DNA of 26,636 nt from a virus. Shown here piece after piece: positions 7,995 through 24,275 of the stretch. The position numbers and the translations under genes are program-made. The notes beneath the pieces were generated by a model, which was not told where the DNA came from, searched no databases, and was given only the letters and a program-made list of their open reading frames with translations. Positions within the stretch are counted from its first letter, which is position 1. The number at the start of each line of letters is the position of its first letter. The stretch is from positions 1 to 26,636 of IMG/VR virus record IMGVR_UViG_3300047299_000097; one strand, written 5' to 3'.

Positions 7995-8269
7995 TATTTA
8001 ACTTTCTTATAATTTTTATCAACAGTATAAGACTTATAAATCTTTAAGTGCGTAACCGTATTAATATATTTAACTAAAATAGTTTGCAGCAGTATTAGAA
8101 AATCCTTTAAATAAATGTTTCTAGCTAATACTGGTGAAACACTTCTAAATAGCAAATCCTTGGTAAAATCTCTACCAAGGTGCTTTCTATTATCTTTTAT
8201 TCCAGTTTGAACTTCATATATGCTTTTCTGTTCTGACTGAAATAAGCCGTTATGTAAATTATCTGCCAT
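7994..8269 (-). CDS. Small hypothetical protein in the baseplate operon
   Basis: A 91-aa protein starting MADNLHNGLFQSEQKSIYEV. It is basic at the C-terminus (VDKNYKKVK) and probably mostly helical, with one moderately hydrophobic helix (IYLKDFLILLQTILVKYINT) that is amphipathic and not a convincing membrane span. Both ends overlap their neighbours by one base: its ATG is in the TAATG that ends the gp6-like gene, and its stop is in the TAATG that starts the 927-aa gene. This implies translational coupling and matched amounts with the two wedge proteins. It may be a small wedge connector, but I recognise no family. Confidence 0.75.
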   Translation of the reverse strand: MADNLHNGLFQSEQKSIYEVQTGIKDNRKHLGRDFTKDLLFRSVSPVLARNIYLKDFLILLQTILVKYINTVTHLKIYKSYTVDKNYKKVK

Positions 8270-10089
8270 TAAATTCTTTTTCTATTTTGTGTTTGCAATT
8301 TAGAATAAATCGTGTTTGGAACCGCTGGATCTTCGAAATATAAAGACATTGCTGCCATTTCGCCGGCTTTAGCATCATCTAAAACTGAAACACCATCTCT
8401 ATCCACCCATCCACCTCTAAATAATGCAACATCCTCTTTTCCTAAGATAATATCTCCAAATGAATCCATTCCAATTACCGTTTCTGGTAATGCATCACCT
8501 GGTGTAATATTAACTTTTGTTGTTTTAGTAGTTTTCTTAAAGAACACATATTTCTGTTGACCATTTCCAATGTCTTGTAAAATTGGAGTTGATGGAGTTA
8601 CAATCGTAGTGTCTACTGTGTAATATCCATTTCTTCTAATAGTTTCTTCTGCTTCAGAAACAAATTTTAAGTTTACAGAATCAATTCCTTCAATTGCTTC
8701 CAATACGGCAATTAAGTCTGACTTAGGCAATTTATCTCTTCTAGTAATATTCAACAAATATTCAGAAACCTTAGAACGAACTTCATTGAATAATTGAACT
8801 TTTGAAAAGCCTTCAAAATATCTAACTTTAATGTCTATTCTAAATAATTTAACATTAGGTTTTACGATTTGAACTTCAGTTGTAACCATTTGTTGCCCTG
8901 ATTTTTCAAGTACACCTAATATAGCGTTATTTTCATCTTGTGAAAAGAAAAATTCATCAGGAGATACACTGAAATAATCTTGATTCTTCGTTAATTTTTT
9001 CTTAACATCAGGTAACATAAATAGGTAGATTACGTTATCATCATCTAAGTATCCATCATCAGTCGTATTATACGCATCTAAATATGAGAACATTCCATAT
9101 TTAGATAAAAAATATTCATAGTTATCCGGTGTTGCTAGTACAAATGACTTAGAAGCCATTGGCGCAATTAATTTAGTTAAATTAATATCTTCAGCATCAG
9201 CGCCCATTCTCGGAGCAACTGTACACTGTAAATCTAACATGTCATTTAATTTATATGAATTTCCAAAAGAGTCATAACCTTCAGTTACAAATTTAAAAGT
9301 TAAATCTTTTGAGTCTGTTAAATTTCCAAGAGATCCTCTTGTAATAATATATGAAATGTCAATGGATGAACCAGCAACTGGCATCATACCAAAGGATCCA
9401 TTTCCAAAATAAACATCTAATCCTCCAGTGATAGCCGTTTTAACTAAGTAACCTTTGGTAGTTGGCAACATATCATATAATGAATCATATTTTTGCCATT
9501 TTTCGCCATTAACCGAGACAGTCACATTATCATGATCAGTATCAGCATTTGTAATAATATTAAAAGATTGTAACGCAGCGCCAGTTCCAGTAACCGTTTG
9601 AGTTTCAAGTTTACCTTGAATAATTGGAATGTATATGTAATTTGAATTTGATTTCTCAATTCTAAATTGATCTGAATTAGTTCTTAAAATATATTCTAAG
9701 CCATTTGAATTTGAAGTAATAATAGCATTCGCAGGTATATTTAAGGCATCACCCGCGATGTCACCAAACGCAGAAGTATTTAATCTAATTGCGATCTCTC
9801 CAAAGGCACTAGCACCTCTATATGCATCATGGCCTGCTAATCTAGCTAAACCATACACTGATTCGGGCTGTTGTGCCGTTAAAATGTTTTGTTCAACGGT
9901 TGAATCTTCTATATAGAAGAAAATTAATTCACCTAGTTCATTAATAACCTCTAAAATTTGAGAGAAAGGTGATGCTGTTGTAAACATTTCACCTAAACGA
10001 CCATATAACCTAGTGATATAGGTTTTACTGTCAGCTATCATTTCAGATGCTTTAATTCTTGATGCCTGTAAGAATTTTAAGTCTGCCAT
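8269..10089 (-). CDS. Baseplate wedge protein, gp6 / baseplate-J family
   Basis: A 606-aa protein with the core pattern of the gp6/baseplate J family. A helical N-terminus (residues 1-90) is followed by a beta domain. VSVNGEKW lies near residue 191, and DVYFGNGSFGMMPVAGSSID at about 225-244 leads to a G-x-L-G-N near 252-256. This 'FGNG x FG x x P x G' loop is the hallmark of the family in T4-like and P2-like contractile tails. In T4, gp6 dimers form the inner ring of the wedges and couple hub changes to sheath contraction. T4 gp6 is about 660 aa, so the length fits. It lies 14 bases after the gp25-like gene, the classical pairing of two interacting wedge proteins. Confidence 0.93.
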   Translation of the reverse strand: MADLKFLQASRIKASEMIADSKTYITRLYGRLGEMFTTASPFSQILEVINELGELIFFYIEDSTVEQNILTAQQPESVYGLARLAGHDAYRGASAFGEIAIRLNTSAFGDIAGDALNIPANAIITSNSNGLEYILRTNSDQFRIEKSNSNYIYIPIIQGKLETQTVTGTGAALQSFNIITNADTDHDNVTVSVNGEKWQKYDSLYDMLPTTKGYLVKTAITGGLDVYFGNGSFGMMPVAGSSIDISYIITRGSLGNLTDSKDLTFKFVTEGYDSFGNSYKLNDMLDLQCTVAPRMGADAEDINLTKLIAPMASKSFVLATPDNYEYFLSKYGMFSYLDAYNTTDDGYLDDDNVIYLFMLPDVKKKLTKNQDYFSVSPDEFFFSQDENNAILGVLEKSGQQMVTTEVQIVKPNVKLFRIDIKVRYFEGFSKVQLFNEVRSKVSEYLLNITRRDKLPKSDLIAVLEAIEGIDSVNLKFVSEAEETIRRNGYYTVDTTIVTPSTPILQDIGNGQQKYVFFKKTTKTTKVNITPGDALPETVIGMDSFGDIILGKEDVALFRGGWVDRDGVSVLDDAKAGEMAAMSLYFEDPAVPNTIYSKLQTQNRKRI

Positions 10090-10103
10090 TTTTGTTTTTT
10101 ATT

Positions 10104-10457
10104 TTAAATAAGTACTTGCAACAAGTATTGTGAATCAATTAGGATGTCAACAAACACTGCGTCTCTTTCAACACCTGATGCAAATTCAACCGTTACTTCT
10201 ACTGCAAATTTTCTCGCCAACGGAACGTAATTCATAATTTGATTATTGATTTCGTTCTCAATCTGCGAAATGTTATAATTTAATTCATATACTAAATCTT
10301 CTAAATTACAACCTAAATCCGGTGCACCCATAACCTCACCTCTTCTAGTGAACATAATCACCTCAAGCTGTGCAATCAATTGCGCAATTTCGCTCTCTGA
10401 CTGTAATTTAGTTGGATCGAAATTAGGTTCATTTTTTGATTTAATATAGAATTCCAT
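10104..10457 (-). CDS. Baseplate wedge protein, gp25 / GPW family
   Basis: A 117-aa protein, close to T4 gp25 (132 aa). The signature is at residues 30-50, LEVIMFTRRGEVMGAPDLGC: the 'T-R-x-G-E ... P-x-x-G' motif, with RRGE in place of the usual R-P-G-E/EPR-type core. It is followed by a helix (NLEDLVYELN) and the beta strand VEVTVEFASGVERDAVFVDI. Gp25 sits at the baseplate core, where the EPR-like loop contacts gp6 and nucleates the sheath. Gene order gp25 then gp6 is preserved. The assignment is firm from motif, size and neighbour. Confidence 0.93.
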   Translation of the reverse strand: MEFYIKSKNEPNFDPTKLQSESEIAQLIAQLEVIMFTRRGEVMGAPDLGCNLEDLVYELNYNISQIENEINNQIMNYVPLARKFAVEVTVEFASGVERDAVFVDILIDSQYLLQVLI

Positions 10458-10472
10458 AGTTTATATATTTTC

Positions 10473-11303
10473 TTAAGAATGCATCATCCAGTCAGTACCT
10501 TCATCACCTTTAATCTCTTCGATAACTGCATCTAGCTCTTCTTTTCCTAAATCTTGAATAACGCTTGCATTTACTTTAACATTACCAGGTAATGTGTAAT
10601 CAAAGATTTGCATCTTTTGACCTAATGCTATTTTAATTTTAGCAGAGCAATATCTAAAGAAAGCTTCGTCTTGGAATAGAGCACATTCTGGAATAGTCTC
10701 ATACACATCTAGAATAATGTCTTTCTTTGGAGTTTCACCCGTAAATCTAAATTCATGAGTTAATTGGCTGTAATGAAACGAAAGAGTATTTTCAATAATT
10801 TGCCTAGACAAATCAAAGTAACTTTCGTTAATCACATAGTATTGCAGGTTTTCAGAACCGGCAACAGTACCGGTACCACCATAAAGACCACCATAAAGCA
10901 TTCTTTCAAGGGCGAAATCACCTGTTGTAAAGTTAACTGAAGTACCTGCACCATATCGGCTACCAGTTTGATAAACACCAAACACTGACCATATTTCACC
11001 GCCGCCAGTGGATGGATCTTCTTTAGGAAGAGTCAAACTTCTAGTTCTTTTGAAGTATTCGCTTTCAAACGTAGAAACAGGAATATAGAACATATTCTCT
11101 CTTACGCTATATTCATAGTTTTTGTGAAACCATTTCTTAGCTCTCTGTACAATATTATATACTTCCTTTTTAGGTAAGTTCATTGGAATCATACAAGCTC
11201 CTGTGATTTCAGATGCTAACTCCTTTAAGAAGTTATCAACACACATACTATCCCATGATGGTGGTAATAGTGTGCTGTCATCTGCTTGAAAAATATCACT
11301 CAT
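10473..11303 (-). CDS. Conserved virion structural protein, probable baseplate or neck component
   Basis: A 276-aa protein starting MSDIFQADDSTLLPPSWDSM. It is mixed alpha/beta. A helical segment with KKEVYNIVQRAKKWFHKNYE at about residues 45-64 is followed by strands with a TLPKE motif and a glycine-rich patch (LYGGLYGGTGTVAG). The long C-terminal part, from about residue 155 on, has many aromatics (YYVINESYFDLSRQIIENTL; FFRYCSAKIKIALG). The aromatic, strand-rich make-up and its place directly before the gp25/gp6 pair point to a baseplate or neck structural role. I cannot tie it securely to gp53, gp13 or gp14. It begins 4 bases after the amidoligase stop. Confidence 0.8.
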   Translation of the reverse strand: MSDIFQADDSTLLPPSWDSMCVDNFLKELASEITGACMIPMNLPKKEVYNIVQRAKKWFHKNYEYSVRENMFYIPVSTFESEYFKRTRSLTLPKEDPSTGGGEIWSVFGVYQTGSRYGAGTSVNFTTGDFALERMLYGGLYGGTGTVAGSENLQYYVINESYFDLSRQIIENTLSFHYSQLTHEFRFTGETPKKDIILDVYETIPECALFQDEAFFRYCSAKIKIALGQKMQIFDYTLPGNVKVNASVIQDLGKEELDAVIEEIKGDEGTDWMMHS

Positions 11304-11307
11304 ATCT

Positions 11308-12609
11308 TTAATCTATTTTTGTCGAATTTACTATTTCTACGTCATTGAATTTAGCGTGCTTAACGCTATAATTACCTTCTCTGAAAATACCGCCATCCAT
11401 CGTTCCTTTAAATTTAGAATCAATGCCGTAAACATAACAGTTCTTTAAAACAACTGTGTTTGCAACATAGGAAGATCCAACTTTAGAATCATTAATTTGG
11501 GTATTTTGATAAAAGTTGCAATTTTTAATATCTGAAGCTTTCACATCGCATTTAAAAAAATCACAGTACGTAACCTCACCTTGTACGTATGAATCAATGA
11601 ATTCATATCCATTTAATTCAAAACAATAAGGTAATTTGCCATCCTTAATTTGGATGCGGCCGGTATCTGAATCATAATTGATGTGACCTTTTTCTAGTTG
11701 ACCATGCGTGAATAGATGAGATACTCTATCTTTAACTTGTGGCCAATATAGATCTATTATGTTAGCATCTGAAGATAAATCTACAGTGAAGTTACACTTT
11801 GGAAAGTTCTCTCTGATCTTTCTCCAATCAACACGAACCTCAATAATTCTTTTATTGTTTGCCAATACTCTCTTAAGTTCAAGTTTATTAGAATCGCTAA
11901 ATGAAGCTCCAGCTTGTGCTGAATTCCATAGTTGAATTAAAAAAATATCGAGCATATTTAAAATCTTTGCAGATTTTTTATGCCAATCTTCACCACCAAG
12001 GTATCTAAATTCTAAATAGTTTTTCTGTAACTTATCAAAATTTACACCATAGTATTTGGTTTTAGGAAAGATAAAATTGTTTTGGCTAATGTGTTCTCCG
12101 TTATAAACGTATGATTCAACTCTTGGAATTACAAATTTAATAGATTTTGCATACGTTGAATCCTTTCTATTTGGGAATGATTTCCAAACAAGATCTTCAT
12201 TAAAGTCTAAAATAAACTTCAACGGACTCATTTTTGAAATTAGATTTTTATTGCCAGATAATTTAGGATCGAAACTTAAATTTAAGTGAATTGAAGATCT
12301 ATCAGTCGTATAACCGTTATCCTTAATCCATTCACACATCTTAATTATCATTAATCTGGCTGCGGTATAAGGCAACGCAGCTGTTACCAATTCATTTAAA
12401 CCAGCACCACCGCTCATGTCTGGTTCAATTTTAAATTCATCAGGTGTTGGTGAAAATGTACTATGCGCCTTTTTCTCAACTTTGATTTTCTTGCCTAACA
12501 GTTTTTCAAGCTGTTTTGCTGTTTCTTCCAAACTATGATTGGAGTAGAATTCGAATTCTACTCCAACCAAAGCTTTGGATAAAATATCTGAATCTTTAAG
12601 ATCTATCAT
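11308..12609 (-). CDS. Amidoligase (COOH-NH2 ligase, glutamine synthetase-like fold) with C-terminal pentapeptide/beta-helix-like tail
   Basis: A 433-aa protein. Residues 14-22 (LVGVEFEFY) carry the metal-binding G-V-E-x-E strand of the amidoligase_2 family. They are followed by IEPDMSGGAGLNELVTAALP (61-80), the D-x-S-x-x-x-x-x-E-L-V-T loop, by the helix YTAARLMIIKMCEWIKDNGY, by SSIHLNLS (105-112) with its conserved His, and by NYLEFRYLGG (197-206) with the conserved E-x-R. These enzymes use ATP to join amino groups to carboxylates, making small peptides or modifying proteins. The last ~100 residues (330-433) read as short repeats (CDFFK, CDVKA, SDIKN, CNFYQ) typical of a pentapeptide-like or right-handed beta-helix. 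The substrate is unknown. It lies between an S1 homologue and structural genes, so virion-protein modification is a reasonable guess. Codons 12-24 contain two abutting DNA palindromes. Confidence 0.85.
   Translation of the reverse strand: MIDLKDSDILSKALVGVEFEFYSNHSLEETAKQLEKLLGKKIKVEKKAHSTFSPTPDEFKIEPDMSGGAGLNELVTAALPYTAARLMIIKMCEWIKDNGYTTDRSSIHLNLSFDPKLSGNKNLISKMSPLKFILDFNEDLVWKSFPNRKDSTYAKSIKFVIPRVESYVYNGEHISQNNFIFPKTKYYGVNFDKLQKNYLEFRYLGGEDWHKKSAKILNMLDIFLIQLWNSAQAGASFSDSNKLELKRVLANNKRIIEVRVDWRKIRENFPKCNFTVDLSSDANIIDLYWPQVKDRVSHLFTHGQLEKGHINYDSDTGRIQIKDGKLPYCFELNGYEFIDSYVQGEVTYCDFFKCDVKASDIKNCNFYQNTQINDSKVGSSYVANTVVLKNCYVYGIDSKFKGTMDGGIFREGNYSVKHAKFNDVEIVNSTKID
12539..12566. repeat. Perfect 28-bp palindrome inside the amidoligase gene
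   Basis: The half-site TTGGAGTAGAATTC is followed immediately by its exact reverse complement. It covers codons 15-24 of the amidoligase gene, including the G-V-E-F-E-F catalytic strand. In mRNA it could fold into a hairpin of up to 12 bp about 45 bases after the start codon. It could also be a protein-binding site. Confidence 0.9.
12567..12578. repeat. Perfect 12-bp palindrome abutting the 28-bp one
   Basis: CCAAAGCTTTGG reads the same on both strands and touches the 28-bp palindrome with no spacer. It covers codons 11-15 of the amidoligase gene. In mRNA it would be the first of two adjacent stem-loops. Confidence 0.85.
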
Positions 12610-12659
12610 CTATATAGCGAATTTTTGTTGTTCACTATATATATATCGTCTTAAAACGA

Positions 12660-13916
12660 TTATAACTTTAAGAATACCTTTCTTGTAGCTTCATCGATTC
12701 TAGTCATCATTACCGTGATAGGATCTCCTTTCTTAATCGCATTAATATCGATACCTTCTAATTCAGAGATATGTAATAAACCAACAATACCTTCTTCAAT
12801 CGTTACAAAGATACCATAATCTTTAATGGACTTAACTGTTCCTTGAATTTGGCAAGGTACTGTATATCTTTCCGAGATATTCGTCCATGGATTTGCAGTT
12901 GCTGATTCAGCAGAACCAACTACCTGTGTTAACGTGATTTTCTTATCACTAATAATTTCTTTAATCATGAATGAAATTTCAGAACCAGCTTCAATTTTAC
13001 CAGAAGCCTGTAATTTAGACATTTCTTCATTTAAATCATTTACGTGAATCATACCCGTTAAGCATCCATTGAATTCAACGAATACACCAAATTTAGCGGT
13101 TCCTGTTACGTTACCAGTTATCATAGTTTCAGCTGGCAATTCTCTCAATTTGTCAATTTCATGAGGAATCATCGCTTGTAAGTATTTTCTATGAGATACC
13201 ACAATAGTTCCTTTATCAGTTGAGAATGAAACTGGAACTACATATAAATCAGTTCCGATGATCGATTCAAAATCTGCTAATTTATTAGCACCAGCTAATG
13301 AACCTGGCATGAAACAGTCAATACCTTGAACATTCACGATGTAACCACCGCCTGGAATCATTTGAGTAACTGTACCAGTGTATGCAGTTTTACCTTCATC
13401 GATAGATTTACGTAATTCAGCAAATATAGCTTGTCTTGTTCCTTCGGTAACTGAACCTGAGATAATACCTCTACTTCCTTCTTCTTTAGCCGTTGTGATC
13501 TTAACCATGAATTCTTTTCCTGGCATGATTAATTTTCTAAATTGAGGAGATTCTGCGCTTAAGTTAATATAAATTAACTCTCTATAACCAATATCAATCA
13601 TCGCAGTATTTTCTGTAACTGAATAGATTGTACCAGTGTGGTGTTCACCCTTTTGAACTGTAGTTACTTTCATGCTGCCTGTCACACCATCATACAGGTC
13701 GTATAATTGTTGCGCGTAGCTTTCTCGACAATAGACTTTATCTCCGTTTTGAGTTTTAATAAAAGGATTTCCTTTTCTTAAAACAGAAGGACAAGATGCT
13801 TCAAACGCATCCCAGTCAAAATTAGGATCTCCAGTAACTGGAACTTCTTGGACTTTACCAATTTTAACGGTTTTCACCGCTACATCGATGTTTTGTTTTT
13901 TTAGTTGTGTTGTCAT
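12660..13916 (-). CDS. Ribosomal protein S1 homologue, four S1 (OB-fold) domains
   Basis: A 418-aa protein with four S1 RNA-binding domains at about residues 92-156, 177-243, 263-332 and 353-418. Each has the G-x-V ... G-x-x-V/I ... G-x-x-H pattern; examples are GTVTQMIPGGGYIVNVQG, GNVTGTAKFGVFVEFNGCLT and GTVKSIKDYGIFVTIEEGIV. Near the N-terminus FDWDAFE (33-39) resembles the N-terminus of Bacteroidota S1. The second domain's GGGYIVNVQGIDCFMPGSL resembles the KGG-type domain 2 of bacterial S1. Cellular S1 brings mRNAs to the 30S subunit. A phage copy could bias translation to phage mRNAs with A/T-rich, SD-less leaders. It is shorter than typical cellular S1 (usually six domains). The gene lies inside the virion block, 50 bases before the amidoligase. 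Domain assignment is secure; the role is inferred. Confidence 0.93.
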   Translation of the reverse strand: MTTQLKKQNIDVAVKTVKIGKVQEVPVTGDPNFDWDAFEASCPSVLRKGNPFIKTQNGDKVYCRESYAQQLYDLYDGVTGSMKVTTVQKGEHHTGTIYSVTENTAMIDIGYRELIYINLSAESPQFRKLIMPGKEFMVKITTAKEEGSRGIISGSVTEGTRQAIFAELRKSIDEGKTAYTGTVTQMIPGGGYIVNVQGIDCFMPGSLAGANKLADFESIIGTDLYVVPVSFSTDKGTIVVSHRKYLQAMIPHEIDKLRELPAETMITGNVTGTAKFGVFVEFNGCLTGMIHVNDLNEEMSKLQASGKIEAGSEISFMIKEIISDKKITLTQVVGSAESATANPWTNISERYTVPCQIQGTVKSIKDYGIFVTIEEGIVGLLHISELEGIDINAIKKGDPITVMMTRIDEATRKVFLKL

Positions 13917-13955: not shown

Positions 13956-14528
13956 TTAAGGCATTGGAATTGATTGAATCATTGATTTAATATCAGCCAA
14001 TTTTTCGATAGTTGCCACGATAGTATCGGGTAATTCAAACGCAATTTTAATGGCTGCTGAAATTAAATTAACAAACCACGTTGCAATTGCATTTAAGACT
14101 GTCAAGAAACCATTTAATTTTTCTTTGTTTCTTAATAAAAAGCTCATTGGGTTTGGAATTCCCGGAGCAGTAGGCACCGGAATTGTAGGTGGAATTAAAT
14201 TTCCGGCAATCATAGTTTGAATTTCAACCGGCAATTGTTTAACCCCATCAGTAGCCGCCTTAAAATTAATTTTAATTTCGCTAATAGATTTTTTAATTTC
14301 AATTTTAGCCTGGCCAGAATTATAGTATGATGTAAGACGTTCTTTTACTGCTTTAGCTTCTTTTTCAGCAGCTTCAGTGTCAGTTATGTATGTTTTAATC
14401 TGATCAAGTTCTTCTTTATATTGTACCTCTATCAGATTTTTGATAACTGCTTCTGGTTCTAAACCCGGTAAACTTATGTCAGCCGTTAATTTATCTAGAG
14501 CAGTTTGTAGCTGTTCAATTGATGCCAT
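13956..14528 (-). CDS. Hypothetical helical protein with proline-rich hinge, baseplate operon
   Basis: A 190-aa protein. The N-terminal 110 residues are helical and partly coiled-coil (AAEKEAKAVKERLTSYYNSG). A hinge rich in Pro follows (PPTIPVPTAPGIPNPM, about 113-128), then a hydrophobic helical pair (LNGFLTVLNAIATWFVNLIS, about 138-157) and a helical C-terminus ending SIPMP. The hydrophobic helix could insert in a membrane or pack inside the tail tube. It lies 28 bases after the spike/hydrolase gene and 39 bases before the S1 homologue. A tail-tip or hub accessory is plausible. A holin is possible but less likely because the hydrophobic part is interrupted and late in the protein. No family is recognised. 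Confidence 0.72.
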   Translation of the reverse strand: MASIEQLQTALDKLTADISLPGLEPEAVIKNLIEVQYKEELDQIKTYITDTEAAEKEAKAVKERLTSYYNSGQAKIEIKKSISEIKINFKAATDGVKQLPVEIQTMIAGNLIPPTIPVPTAPGIPNPMSFLLRNKEKLNGFLTVLNAIATWFVNLISAAIKIAFELPDTIVATIEKLADIKSMIQSIPMP

Positions 14529-14556
14529 TATTATTTAATTTAACAAGTTATATATC

Positions 14557-16101
14557 TTACGCAGATGGCGCTTTAAATAGCAATAAATTCCATTTTGAAT
14601 GAGATTTACCGCCATACACGAAATTAGTATTGTAATTATTCCTGTTATCGGTCGACCACTTATGACCGTTAGATCTTTGATGAAAGGCTCCTGTGAAAAT
14701 TTGAGTGTGACCATATTTTCTACAACTTGCTTCTGCATCACCAGCCGTTGCCCAATATACAACAACGTCTCCGATATCATAATCCTGTTTTAGCGCGTTT
14801 GCTAATTCTCCCTTCGATATGTTAGTTCCTAACACCATTTTTCTATAACCTAATGAAGTTAATGCAGAATGATAACCCGAACCGTTTGCATTTCCTCCAG
14901 CAGCAGATATAGCGCCTTTAGTCATTTTTTTACCCGATAAACCAGCTATATAATTTTTAGCATGATTATATGTAAATCTTGCGCAACTTCCATGTTTTTC
15001 ACCGGCAGCCAACGTTGATTCAACCGTGTTAATGATTGAGTTTAATTGTTTGCTGCTAGCATTTCCATTATAAAAAGATGTGGATAGATCATTACCTGAA
15101 TTTTTGTCATCATTGTCTATTTCTTCATCACCTGTCGTAACACCAGACACTGCAACTGGAGCTCCGTTTGGATCTAATATGATTTCATCTACGGTGCTAT
15201 AAGTGACTGGTGTTTCATTTGAAACGCCAGGTTGAGCGCCTTGTGCCCCAGTAGCAGTCGTCGTAGATGTCGCAGCCCCAGCCGAAACTGAAGGAGCCGG
15301 TGAAGCAGGACCTGATCCAGTTGAACTTGAAGTAGCATTAGCTCCACCTCCAGTAGAATTAGCAGCAGTTCCAGATGACGGTGTGCCTCCTGTGTTGCCG
15401 CCACCACCCGATGTTGATGAACCTGCTTTAACTTGTTTAATTGTCTCTAGTTTACCCTTAATAGCGGAAACTTTAGTTGAATCAGCCGGTAGTGGAGGAC
15501 CAGATGGTCCATTTGGAGTTGGATGCTTATGAGCTACGAATGCAGCCATAAAATCATCTAATATCTTTCTTAATGTTTCTCCCTTAACAGCTGGCTCTTT
15601 TTCATCTTGCCAATTTGAAGATATAAAAATGCTTTCGGCATTTAAATATATCTTGCCATCATTAAATCTGATCATTGGTGATTTATGGTTGTCTTCACCC
15701 GTTGTTAAAATTAAACCATCTTCCTTACTTACGTAAAATCTAAAATTACGCATTGCGTCATAAATCAATGAAATAACGTCATGCGCATTTGCAGCGCCGT
15801 CTAGGACTTCTTTCTTTAATTCTGCGTTTTGATTGATGTGATATGAATACATTGGTAAATATATGTTACCATTATCAAATGTTATAGCAACTATATCACC
15901 AACCCTTGGAACGAAATGTTGACCGGGAGCCAAAGTATTTGATGGTGCCGCCCATGGAATTGCATCGGTTGGAATAGTATCGAACTTTCCATAAACCTTA
16001 ACTTTACACCTACCGTGCTTAAGTGGATCGTTGTTATCAACAACTTCTCCAAGCCAGTGTGTATCCCTAATGTTGTCTGAACCTAATTCGTTTTCTGTCA
16101 T
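14557..16101 (-). CDS. gp5-like baseplate spike: OB-fold, short spike stem, low-complexity linker and C-terminal CHAP-like hydrolase
   Basis: A 514-aa protein with a recognisable order of parts. Residues 14-90 form the gp5/gpV-type OB-fold (WLGEVVDNNDPLKHGRCKVK ... VPRVGDIVAITFDNGN). Residues 110-165 are a short beta-stem segment (ILTTGEDNHKSPMIRFNDGK). AHKHPTPNGPSGPPLP (190-205) is the H-x-H-P-T ... G-P-S-G-P-P motif typical of tail-spike proteins. Residues 225-295 are a Gly/Ser/Thr/Ala linker. Residues 350-514 look like a CHAP/NlpC-P60-type cysteine peptidase, with candidate Cys373 (HGSCARF), His465 (YGHTQIFTG) and Asp485. It would pierce the envelope and cut peptidoglycan on injection. In T4 gp5 the enzyme is a lysozyme placed between OB and stem, so this is a different layout. 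The catalytic residues are assigned by pattern only. Confidence 0.87.
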   Translation of the reverse strand: MTENELGSDNIRDTHWLGEVVDNNDPLKHGRCKVKVYGKFDTIPTDAIPWAAPSNTLAPGQHFVPRVGDIVAITFDNGNIYLPMYSYHINQNAELKKEVLDGAANAHDVISLIYDAMRNFRFYVSKEDGLILTTGEDNHKSPMIRFNDGKIYLNAESIFISSNWQDEKEPAVKGETLRKILDDFMAAFVAHKHPTPNGPSGPPLPADSTKVSAIKGKLETIKQVKAGSSTSGGGGNTGGTPSSGTAANSTGGGANATSSSTGSGPASPAPSVSAGAATSTTTATGAQGAQPGVSNETPVTYSTVDEIILDPNGAPVAVSGVTTGDEEIDNDDKNSGNDLSTSFYNGNASSKQLNSIINTVESTLAAGEKHGSCARFTYNHAKNYIAGLSGKKMTKGAISAAGGNANGSGYHSALTSLGYRKMVLGTNISKGELANALKQDYDIGDVVVYWATAGDAEASCRKYGHTQIFTGAFHQRSNGHKWSTDNRNNYNTNFVYGGKSHSKWNLLLFKAPSA

Positions 16102-23759: not shown

Positions 23760-24275
23760 TTAATCGTTATTCCATACGATAACTTGTGTAACTTCGATCC
23801 CTGCGCGCTGTAATAACATAATACCTGACATGTCTCTGTAGTCTTCGCAATAGAATACTTCTTTAACGCCGGCTTGAATGATTAGTTTAGCACAATCAAA
23901 ACATGGCAGTGTAGTAGTGTAGAGGATAGAATCCTTGCATGACATAGTAGATTTTGCCAATTTCATTAATGCATTTGATTCTGCATGCAATACTTCTCTC
24001 TTCGTTATTTCTTTATGACAACTGCATGAATTGTCATTTGAGATAGTCCATCCCTGATCTTCTAGCATTGCAGCGCCATCTGGGCTTTCATAATAACGGG
24101 TAATAGTTTCTTCACATTCGTTTTCAAAACCATGTGGAGTGCCATTATAGCCAAATGAAATGATTTGCTCGTCTTTAACAATAACACATCCAACCTTACG
24201 TCTCTCGGCATAAGATAGTTTTGCCACTTGGTAGGCAATTTGCATATAGATTTTATCGATCGGAATTCTTGGCAT
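23760..24275 (-). CDS. Deoxycytidylate (dCMP) deaminase
   Basis: A 171-aa zinc-dependent deaminase converting dCMP to dUMP, which feeds thymidylate synthesis during phage replication. The catalytic HAE lies at residues 97-99 (LHAESNAL) and the zinc ligands in PCFDCAK at 124-130 (Cys125, Cys128). The N-terminal strand carries RKVGCVIVKDEQIISFGYNG (26-45) with the substrate-binding G-Y-N-G. The insert at about 46-95 contains CSCHKE, consistent with the second structural zinc site of the T4 CD/DCTD type. The length is typical (about 150-195 aa). It is the first gene after a terminator and has a TATAAATA element 17 bases upstream of the ATG, so it probably opens a transcription unit with the small genes downstream. 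It is equivalent to the T4 cd gene in function. Confidence 0.95.
   Translation of the reverse strand: MPRIPIDKIYMQIAYQVAKLSYAERRKVGCVIVKDEQIISFGYNGTPHGFENECEETITRYYESPDGAAMLEDQGWTISNDNSCSCHKEITKREVLHAESNALMKLAKSTMSCKDSILYTTTLPCFDCAKLIIQAGVKEVFYCEDYRDMSGIMLLQRAGIEVTQVIVWNND

What the first reader, a model, noticed from the sequence alone, without database searches (positions are those of the whole stretch)
12660..13916. Phage ribosomal protein S1 homologue embedded in a baseplate operon
Four S1 domains are seen in the protein, with an N-terminus (FDWDAFE) and a second domain like Bacteroidota RpsA. Nearly all genes in the window have A/T-rich leaders and no Shine-Dalgarno sequence, which is how Bacteroidota mRNAs look and where S1 matters most for initiation. 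A phage S1 could redirect ribosomes to phage mRNA. Phage-borne ribosomal proteins, S1 included, have been reported in large phages, so the family is not new. Its place among hub and wedge genes, expressed with virion proteins, is unusual and could also mean packaging into the virion.
Basis: partly seen in the sequence, partly recalled or inferred. Interest (0 to 1): 0.72.

Follow-up and report, generated by a model that had tools for sequence, protein, structure and literature searches.

The report
Late phage ribosomal protein S1 homologue
A large bacteriophage carries its own four-domain version of ribosomal protein S1, the protein that loads mRNA onto ribosomes; the gene is fixed in this phage family, looks switched on late with the particle genes, and probably steers host ribosomes to phage messages, an idea already proposed for huge phages but not yet tested.

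Summary
In detail: window 12660-13916 is a minus-strand, 418-aa protein with four S1/OB domains equivalent to domains 1-4 of ribosomal protein bS1. Relatives (48-73% identity) occur in at least 80 IMG/VR contigs, always next to an amidoligase and a gp25/wedge baseplate cluster; S1 is present in 68 of 68 wedge loci with enough upstream sequence. It is not a recent Bacteroidota RpsA: with S1 of Lak phages and published 460-735 kb phages it forms one clade (100/100) apart from all bacterial RpsA sampled; its bacterial source cannot be resolved. It keeps residues that anchor bS1 to uS2 and the RNA-binding aromatics/His of domains 3-4, and adds a conserved basic N-terminal arm. Shine-Dalgarno motifs are depleted in the family. 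A strand-specific promoter-like motif (GATATATAA/T) shared with capsid, protease and tail-tube genes precedes S1 or the gene before it, and a terminator often follows, so S1 is a late transcription unit of its own rather than a baseplate gene. Best reading: a late, phage-dedicated mRNA-loading ribosomal protein. Nothing supports virion packaging beyond gene position. rpS1 in huge phages was already reported (PMC7162821), so this is a new member of a known kind.

The parts
12660..13916 (-). S1-domain protein, 418 aa, four OB/S1 domains equivalent to bS1 D1-D4
13800..13820 (-). FDWDAFE motif (residues 33-39), shared with Bacteroidota RpsA N-termini; F33 and W35 invariant in 24 phage relatives
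13728..13799 (-). phage-specific basic arm (residues 40-63, consensus CPSxxRKPNPHIKTxNGxKVYS); also recognisable in Lak phages; absent from bacterial RpsA read here
13680..13721 (-). predicted N-terminal helix (residues 66-79) with invariant Y67-A68-Q69, matching E. coli bS1 F5-A6-Q7 that docks on uS2
13449..13652 (-). OB1 (about residues 89-156); R112 (R22/K2 of 24) at the position of bS1 Lys43
13194..13388 (-). OB2 (about residues 177-241), FMPGSLAGxNKL signature; a scan of 84,980 genomes for it returned only four relatives, all in MAG contigs
12921..13127 (-). OB3 (about residues 264-332), RNA-binding-type Y/F276, F279, H291
12663..12863 (-). OB4 (about residues 352-418), Y367, F370, H382
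13956..14528 (-). 190-aa gene before S1, variable in the family; in this window it probably shares the transcription unit with S1
14548..14556 (-). GATATATAA promoter-like motif that would serve gene 13956-14528 and S1
12639..12647 (-). GATATATAT promoter-like motif of the downstream amidoligase-baseplate unit
11308..12609 (-). amidoligase (PF12224), neighbour of S1 in all 80 relatives of this family
14557..16101 (-). baseplate hub/spike protein (gpV/gp5-type OB domain), conserved upstream neighbour
8269..11303 (-). baseplate wedge cluster: phrog_211 head-tail adaptor-like, gp25, and gp6-like wedge

Best explanation
The gene encodes a phage-dedicated ribosomal protein S1. Made late in infection from a promoter class shared with capsid and tail genes, it docks by its N-terminal helix and OB1 on uS2 at the mRNA exit of the host 30S subunit, in place of or in competition with host bS1. 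Its OB3-OB4 domains then capture the unstructured A-rich, SD-less leaders of phage late mRNAs and deliver them for initiation. The conserved basic arm before the docking helix may add contacts to the ribosomal platform and help it displace host bS1. Shown here: domain content, conserved docking and RNA-binding residues, fixation in the family, purifying selection, SD depletion, and the shared promoter-like motif. Inferred: ribosome binding, displacement of host bS1, preference for phage mRNA, late timing.
For: Co-linear match to RpsA D1-D4; best structural neighbours are bS1 on 30S complexes, aligned from the N-terminal helix onward (9guq, 9gup, 8peg, 9guv). Y67-A68-Q69 invariant in 24 of 24 relatives at the place of bS1 F5-A6-Q7, and a basic residue at the K43 position in 24 of 24 (docking residues from PMC10123108). 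Aromatic-F-His triads retained in OB3 and OB4. S1 in 68 of 68 wedge loci with upstream room; dN/dS 0.08-0.16 in close pairs. SD motifs depleted, A-rich leaders, as in Bacteroidota, where S1 is proposed to act (PMC3155529, PMC6847099). GATATATAW 207:5 strand bias; before S1 and amidoligase and, in a 256-kb relative, before Gp23 capsid, prohead protease and tail tube genes. bS21, a contact partner of bS1 OB1, is encoded in 10 of 20 S1-phage records including the closest relative.
Against: No biochemical or expression data. Score far below the RpsA equivalog cut-off (156 against 577 bits), although most bacterial RpsA of the control genomes also miss it. bS1 F9 is usually replaced by L/Y and the helix register is not fixed by the model (pTM 0.46; N-terminal arm pLDDT below 60). 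Lak homologues lack OB4 and the K43-type residue. No bS21 was found in half of the records, although most are fragments, and no control set of S1-less phages was run. The motif is called a late promoter only by the genes it precedes.
Confidence: 0.66

Rival explanations
1. The S1 protein is a virion or baseplate-assembly protein (or is packaged and injected), explaining its place between hub and wedge genes.
For: Position between spike and gp25/wedge genes conserved in 80 loci and in the 462-kb phage LR756500. OB folds occur in phage baseplate proteins (neighbour 14557-16101).
Against: S1 has its own promoter-like motif and often a terminator. Its sequence keeps ribosome-docking and RNA-binding residues. 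In Lak phages the orthologue sits by Thg1 and DnaB genes, and in four huge phages away from the amidoligase. The match is to RpsA, not to baseplate OB proteins.
Confidence: 0.1
2. The protein is a translation shut-off factor: it takes the uS2 site or sequesters mRNA so that host initiation falls, without itself loading phage mRNA.
For: Docking residues kept but domains 5-6 absent; separate phage clade.
Against: RNA-binding residues of OB3 and OB4 are invariant, and phage leaders are of the S1-dependent type themselves. The apparent late promoter class argues against an early shut-off role.
Confidence: 0.1
3. Off-ribosome RNA role: mRNA stability, a cofactor of a phage RNase (as host S1 is for T4 RegB), replication or transcription, or autoregulation.
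For: Host S1 has such roles with T4, Q-beta and lambda (PMC13157829); Lak S1 lies near replication genes.
Against: The N-terminal uS2-docking helix would not need to be conserved; bS21 is found in 10 of 20 of these phages.
Confidence: 0.14

Closest known systems
rpS1 of huge phages (Al-Shayeb et al. 2020, PMC7162821), here records LR756500-LR756504 and LR745206
   Same: Same clade (100/100), same multi-domain architecture, same link with missing SD sequences. LR756500 also shares the gene order hub-tube-spike-S1-amidoligase.
   Different: 27-34% identity overall in the alignment; in the other four the gene lies elsewhere; this family is known from contigs up to 256 kb and has a more conserved basic arm. 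That these records come from the 2020 study is from memory.
Lak megaphage S1 (Prevotella phages, MK250015-MK250029)
   Same: Same clade, same N-terminal FDW...KTKNxEKVYSxESYAQxLYDxY segment.
   Different: Only OB1-OB3; gene beside Thg1 and DnaB helicase; no amidoligase or bS21 found in the two genomes searched.
Bacteroidota RpsA (for example Bacteroides, Prevotella)
   Same: Domains 1-4 and the F[DN]W[DE] N-terminal motif.
   Different: Host protein has six domains and a tail; lacks the basic arm; separate clade.
E. coli bS1
   Same: uS2-docking segment ESFAQLFEES resembles RESYAQQLYDL; K43 equivalent basic; OB3-OB4 RNA-binding triads.
   Different: Six domains, no N-terminal arm, SD-using host.
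Phage-encoded bS21 of Bacteroidota phages (PMC9723584)
   Same: Translation-initiation protein of the mRNA exit platform, encoded near structural genes and expressed with them late.
   Different: A different ribosomal protein; host-like, with clear Bacteroidota affinity.
bS1 of cyanophage PhiMa05 (PMC13157829)
   Same: Phage-encoded bS1.
   Different: Groups with bacterial RpsA, not with this clade; lies near other ribosomal-protein genes of cellular origin.

Membership tests
bS1 / RpsA (bacterial ribosomal protein S1) | tandem S1 (OB) domains co-linear with RpsA D1-D4 | tested here: met
bS1 / RpsA (bacterial ribosomal protein S1) | N-terminal uS2-docking helix (F5, Q7, F9, E10) and K43 | tested here: inconclusive
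   Y, A, Q and a basic K43 equivalent are conserved, F9 and E10 are not strictly; binding itself not testable
bS1 / RpsA (bacterial ribosomal protein S1) | score above the NCBIfam RpsA equivalog cut-off | tested here: not met
   155.7 against 577 bits; only 2 of 14 control genomes pass this cut-off either, so the test is strict
bS1 / RpsA (bacterial ribosomal protein S1) | falls inside the bacterial RpsA tree | tested here: not met
   separate clade, 100/100; only 16 non-clade RpsA rows, no Flavobacteriia
bS1 / RpsA (bacterial ribosomal protein S1) | binds the 30S subunit and recruits mRNA | not testable with these tools
   needs biochemistry
Bacteroidota RpsA specifically | sister to Bacteroidota RpsA | tested here: inconclusive
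   AU p 0.368; two other phyla fit as well
huge-phage rpS1 | common clade with rpS1 of published huge phages | tested here: met
huge-phage rpS1 | carried by phages with few SD sequences | tested here: met
   published correlation
phage virion/baseplate protein | present in purified virions | not testable with these tools
   no proteome available

The most novel reading that the evidence does not exclude
These phages build a hybrid ribosome during the late phase: phage S1, often with phage bS21, replaces the host proteins at the mRNA exit platform, and the phage-specific basic arm of S1 gives it an advantage over host bS1, so initiation is selective for SD-less, A-rich late phage mRNAs. The S1 would be an ancient, phage-specific branch of the ribosomal protein, maintained across phages of different genome size and habitat.
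Probability: 0.3. Interest if true: 0.78.

Novelty: new member of a known kind. Interest (0 to 1): 0.52.

Why it matters
It turns the published suggestion that huge phages use their own S1 to take over translation into a testable case: a compact, highly conserved protein with a recognisable ribosome-docking end, an apparently late promoter, and probable hosts whose ribosomes ignore Shine-Dalgarno sequences. If true, the ribosome's mRNA-loading protein is a phage-replaceable part with its own long viral lineage.

Tried and rejected
Recent transfer from a Bacteroidota host: rejected as unsupported; the branch to the phage clade is long and AU tests cannot choose a phylum. S1-amidoligase functional pair: weakened, since the amidoligase is present but unlinked in four huge phages and absent in two Lak genomes. 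S1 co-transcribed with the baseplate genes: not supported in most relatives; own promoter-like motif and often a terminator; in this window it follows one small gene. Generic sigma-70 promoter and terminator scan of 10-18 kb: no excess over shuffles, uninformative. PHROGs gave only a chance-level hit for S1. The genome-contig scan, meant to collect Bacteroidota RpsA, returned only four MAG contigs, at least one with a member of the phage clade, so RpsA rows were taken from plasmid-collection records and contaminant contigs instead; Flavobacteriia and Cytophagia RpsA are missing from the tree. No paper was found on S1 in purified virions of such phages. Several 'phage' records with RpsA hits (MT83xxxx, OR84xxxx) are probably bacterial contamination and were used only as bacterial rows.

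Full report
What is there. The ORF at 12660-13916 is real and lies on the minus strand like nearly all genes in this 26.6-kb virus record. Pfam S1 scores 1.3e-21. RpsA models cover residues 75-417 against D1-D4 of RpsA at 1e-45 to 1e-48, while PNPase and RNase R match one domain at a time. AlphaFold2 on 24 family members gives four OB folds and a helix at 66-79. VIA-align ranks bS1 in 30S mRNA-delivery complexes first, aligned from the N-terminal helix (Z 13-14).

Family and place. Eighty IMG/VR loci carry relatives at 48-73% identity; 32 of 49 full-length sequences are distinct at 95%. All 80 have the amidoligase next, followed where the contig reaches by the phrog_211-like, gp25 and wedge genes. 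Starting independently from the wedge gene, S1 was found in 68 of 80 loci. The other 12 are cut off by the contig end within about 0.9 kb upstream of the amidoligase, or before it, so there was no clear case of loss. The 462-kb phage LR756500 keeps the same order at 36% S1 identity, but four other huge phages and two Lak phages do not. In Lak-B5 the orthologue lies beside a tRNA-His guanylyltransferase and a DnaB helicase. S1 evolves under purifying selection (dN/dS 0.08-0.16).

Ancestry. A maximum-likelihood tree of D1-D4 puts this family, Lak S1, the huge-phage S1 and a contig in an Erysipelotrichaceae MAG in one clade with full support, apart from RpsA of Bacteroidota, Chlamydiota, Proteobacteria and gut/Firmicutes-type rows and from the cyanophage PhiMa05 bS1, which groups with cellular RpsA. 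Forcing the clade next to Bacteroidota, Proteobacteria or Firmicutes/PhiMa05 costs under 1 log unit each. A scan of 84,980 genomes for the clade's OB2/OB3 signatures gave only four relatives, all in MAG contigs. The F[DN]W[DE] motif before domain 1 was seen otherwise only in Bacteroidota RpsA, a hint of Bacteroidota ancestry or convergence, no more.

Anatomy for function. E. coli bS1 binds uS2 through F5, Q7, F9, E10 and K43 (PMC10123108). In all 24 relatives the helix begins Y-A-Q, and the K43 position is R or K; F9 and E10 are replaced by L/F/Y-type residues, and the exact register is not certain. OB3 and OB4 keep the aromatic, Phe and His of RNA-binding S1 domains without exception. Domains 5-6 of the six-domain bacterial protein are missing. 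Between the FxWD motif and the helix lies a 24-residue arm, CPSxxRKPNPHIKTxNGxKVYS, net charge +1 to +6, with invariant Cys and Asn. It is recognisable in Lak phages and absent from the bacterial proteins read here. This recalls the basic N-terminal extensions described for phage S21 (PMC7162821).

Expression context. SD motifs of 5 nt or more are found in 0.3% of 378 family leaders against 7.4% of random positions, and A is enriched at -3 and -12 to -14. That resembles the pattern described for F. johnsoniae (PMC6847099) and the proposed S1-led initiation of Bacteroidota (PMC3155529). A motif GATATATAA/T occurs 207 times on the gene strand and 5 times on the other strand of the 80 loci. It sits about 35-40 nt before S1 and amidoligase starts, and before gene 19377, but not before hub, spike or wedge genes. 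In a 256-kb relative it occurs 22 times, always on the minus (main coding) strand, before Gp23 capsid, prohead protease and tail tube genes among others. Fifty of 80 loci have a terminator-like hairpin after S1 (loci not dereplicated). S1 is therefore most likely a late unit inserted between structural units, not a cistron of the baseplate operon. In this window the motif at 14556 would serve the 190-aa gene and S1, and the next one at 12647 the amidoligase.

Partners. bS21, which bridges bS1 OB1 and 16S rRNA in E. coli, is encoded in 10 of 20 S1-phage records, including the nearest relative and four of the huge phages. No control frequency was measured.

Judgement. The protein most likely works as a phage ribosomal protein S1 used late in infection to favour phage mRNA. 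Docking, competition and mRNA choice are inferred. Membership: it meets the architecture of bS1 but fails the equivalog score and the position inside the bacterial tree, so it is filed as a member of the huge-phage rpS1 clade, working like bS1. Packaging in the virion has no support beyond gene position. The kind of gene and the SD link were published in 2020; the clade, its fixation in this family, the late promoter-like unit, the conserved docking residues and the basic arm are what this analysis adds, as far as the papers held here show.

Noticed in passing
window 12611-12641: Palindrome overlapping the promoter-like motif between S1 and amidoligase (TATATAGTGAA..TTCGCTATATA). Relatives keep a stem with different sequence (L001 GATATATATAGTGAA..TTCACTGTATATATC; L046 GAGTGTGATAT..ATATCATACTC). 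Operator or RNA hairpin, unexplained.
   Followed up: partly
window 11308-12609: Amidoligase_2 homologue with invariant E18, E20, E62, D64, E73, H108, N110, E200, R202 and a repeat-like C-terminal half. Present in 80 of 80 relatives and unlinked in four huge phages; substrate unknown.
   Followed up: partly
window 14548-14556, 12639-12647 and 25145; L210-L222: GATATATAA/T, a strand-specific promoter-like motif, mostly 28-49 nt before starts, resembling but distinct from the T4 late promoter TATAAATA; 22 copies in a 256-kb relative.
   Followed up: partly
between spike and S1 in relatives, and the S1 to amidoligase gap (about 950 bp in L002-L012): Variable accessory genes inserted on one or both sides of S1, suggesting a small cargo site around it.
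   Followed up: no
window 23760-24275: dCMP/cytidine deaminase-like gene upstream of the structural cluster, named from its sequence only; no family search was run on it.
   Followed up: no
L091 (uncultured Erysipelotrichaceae MAG RUG187, contig of 43 kb): Member of the phage S1 clade in a bacterial MAG, probably a mis-binned phage contig.
   Followed up: no
public records MT835643, OR846962, OR846668 and others: Records labelled phage that carry full cellular-type RpsA, likely bacterial contamination.
   Followed up: no
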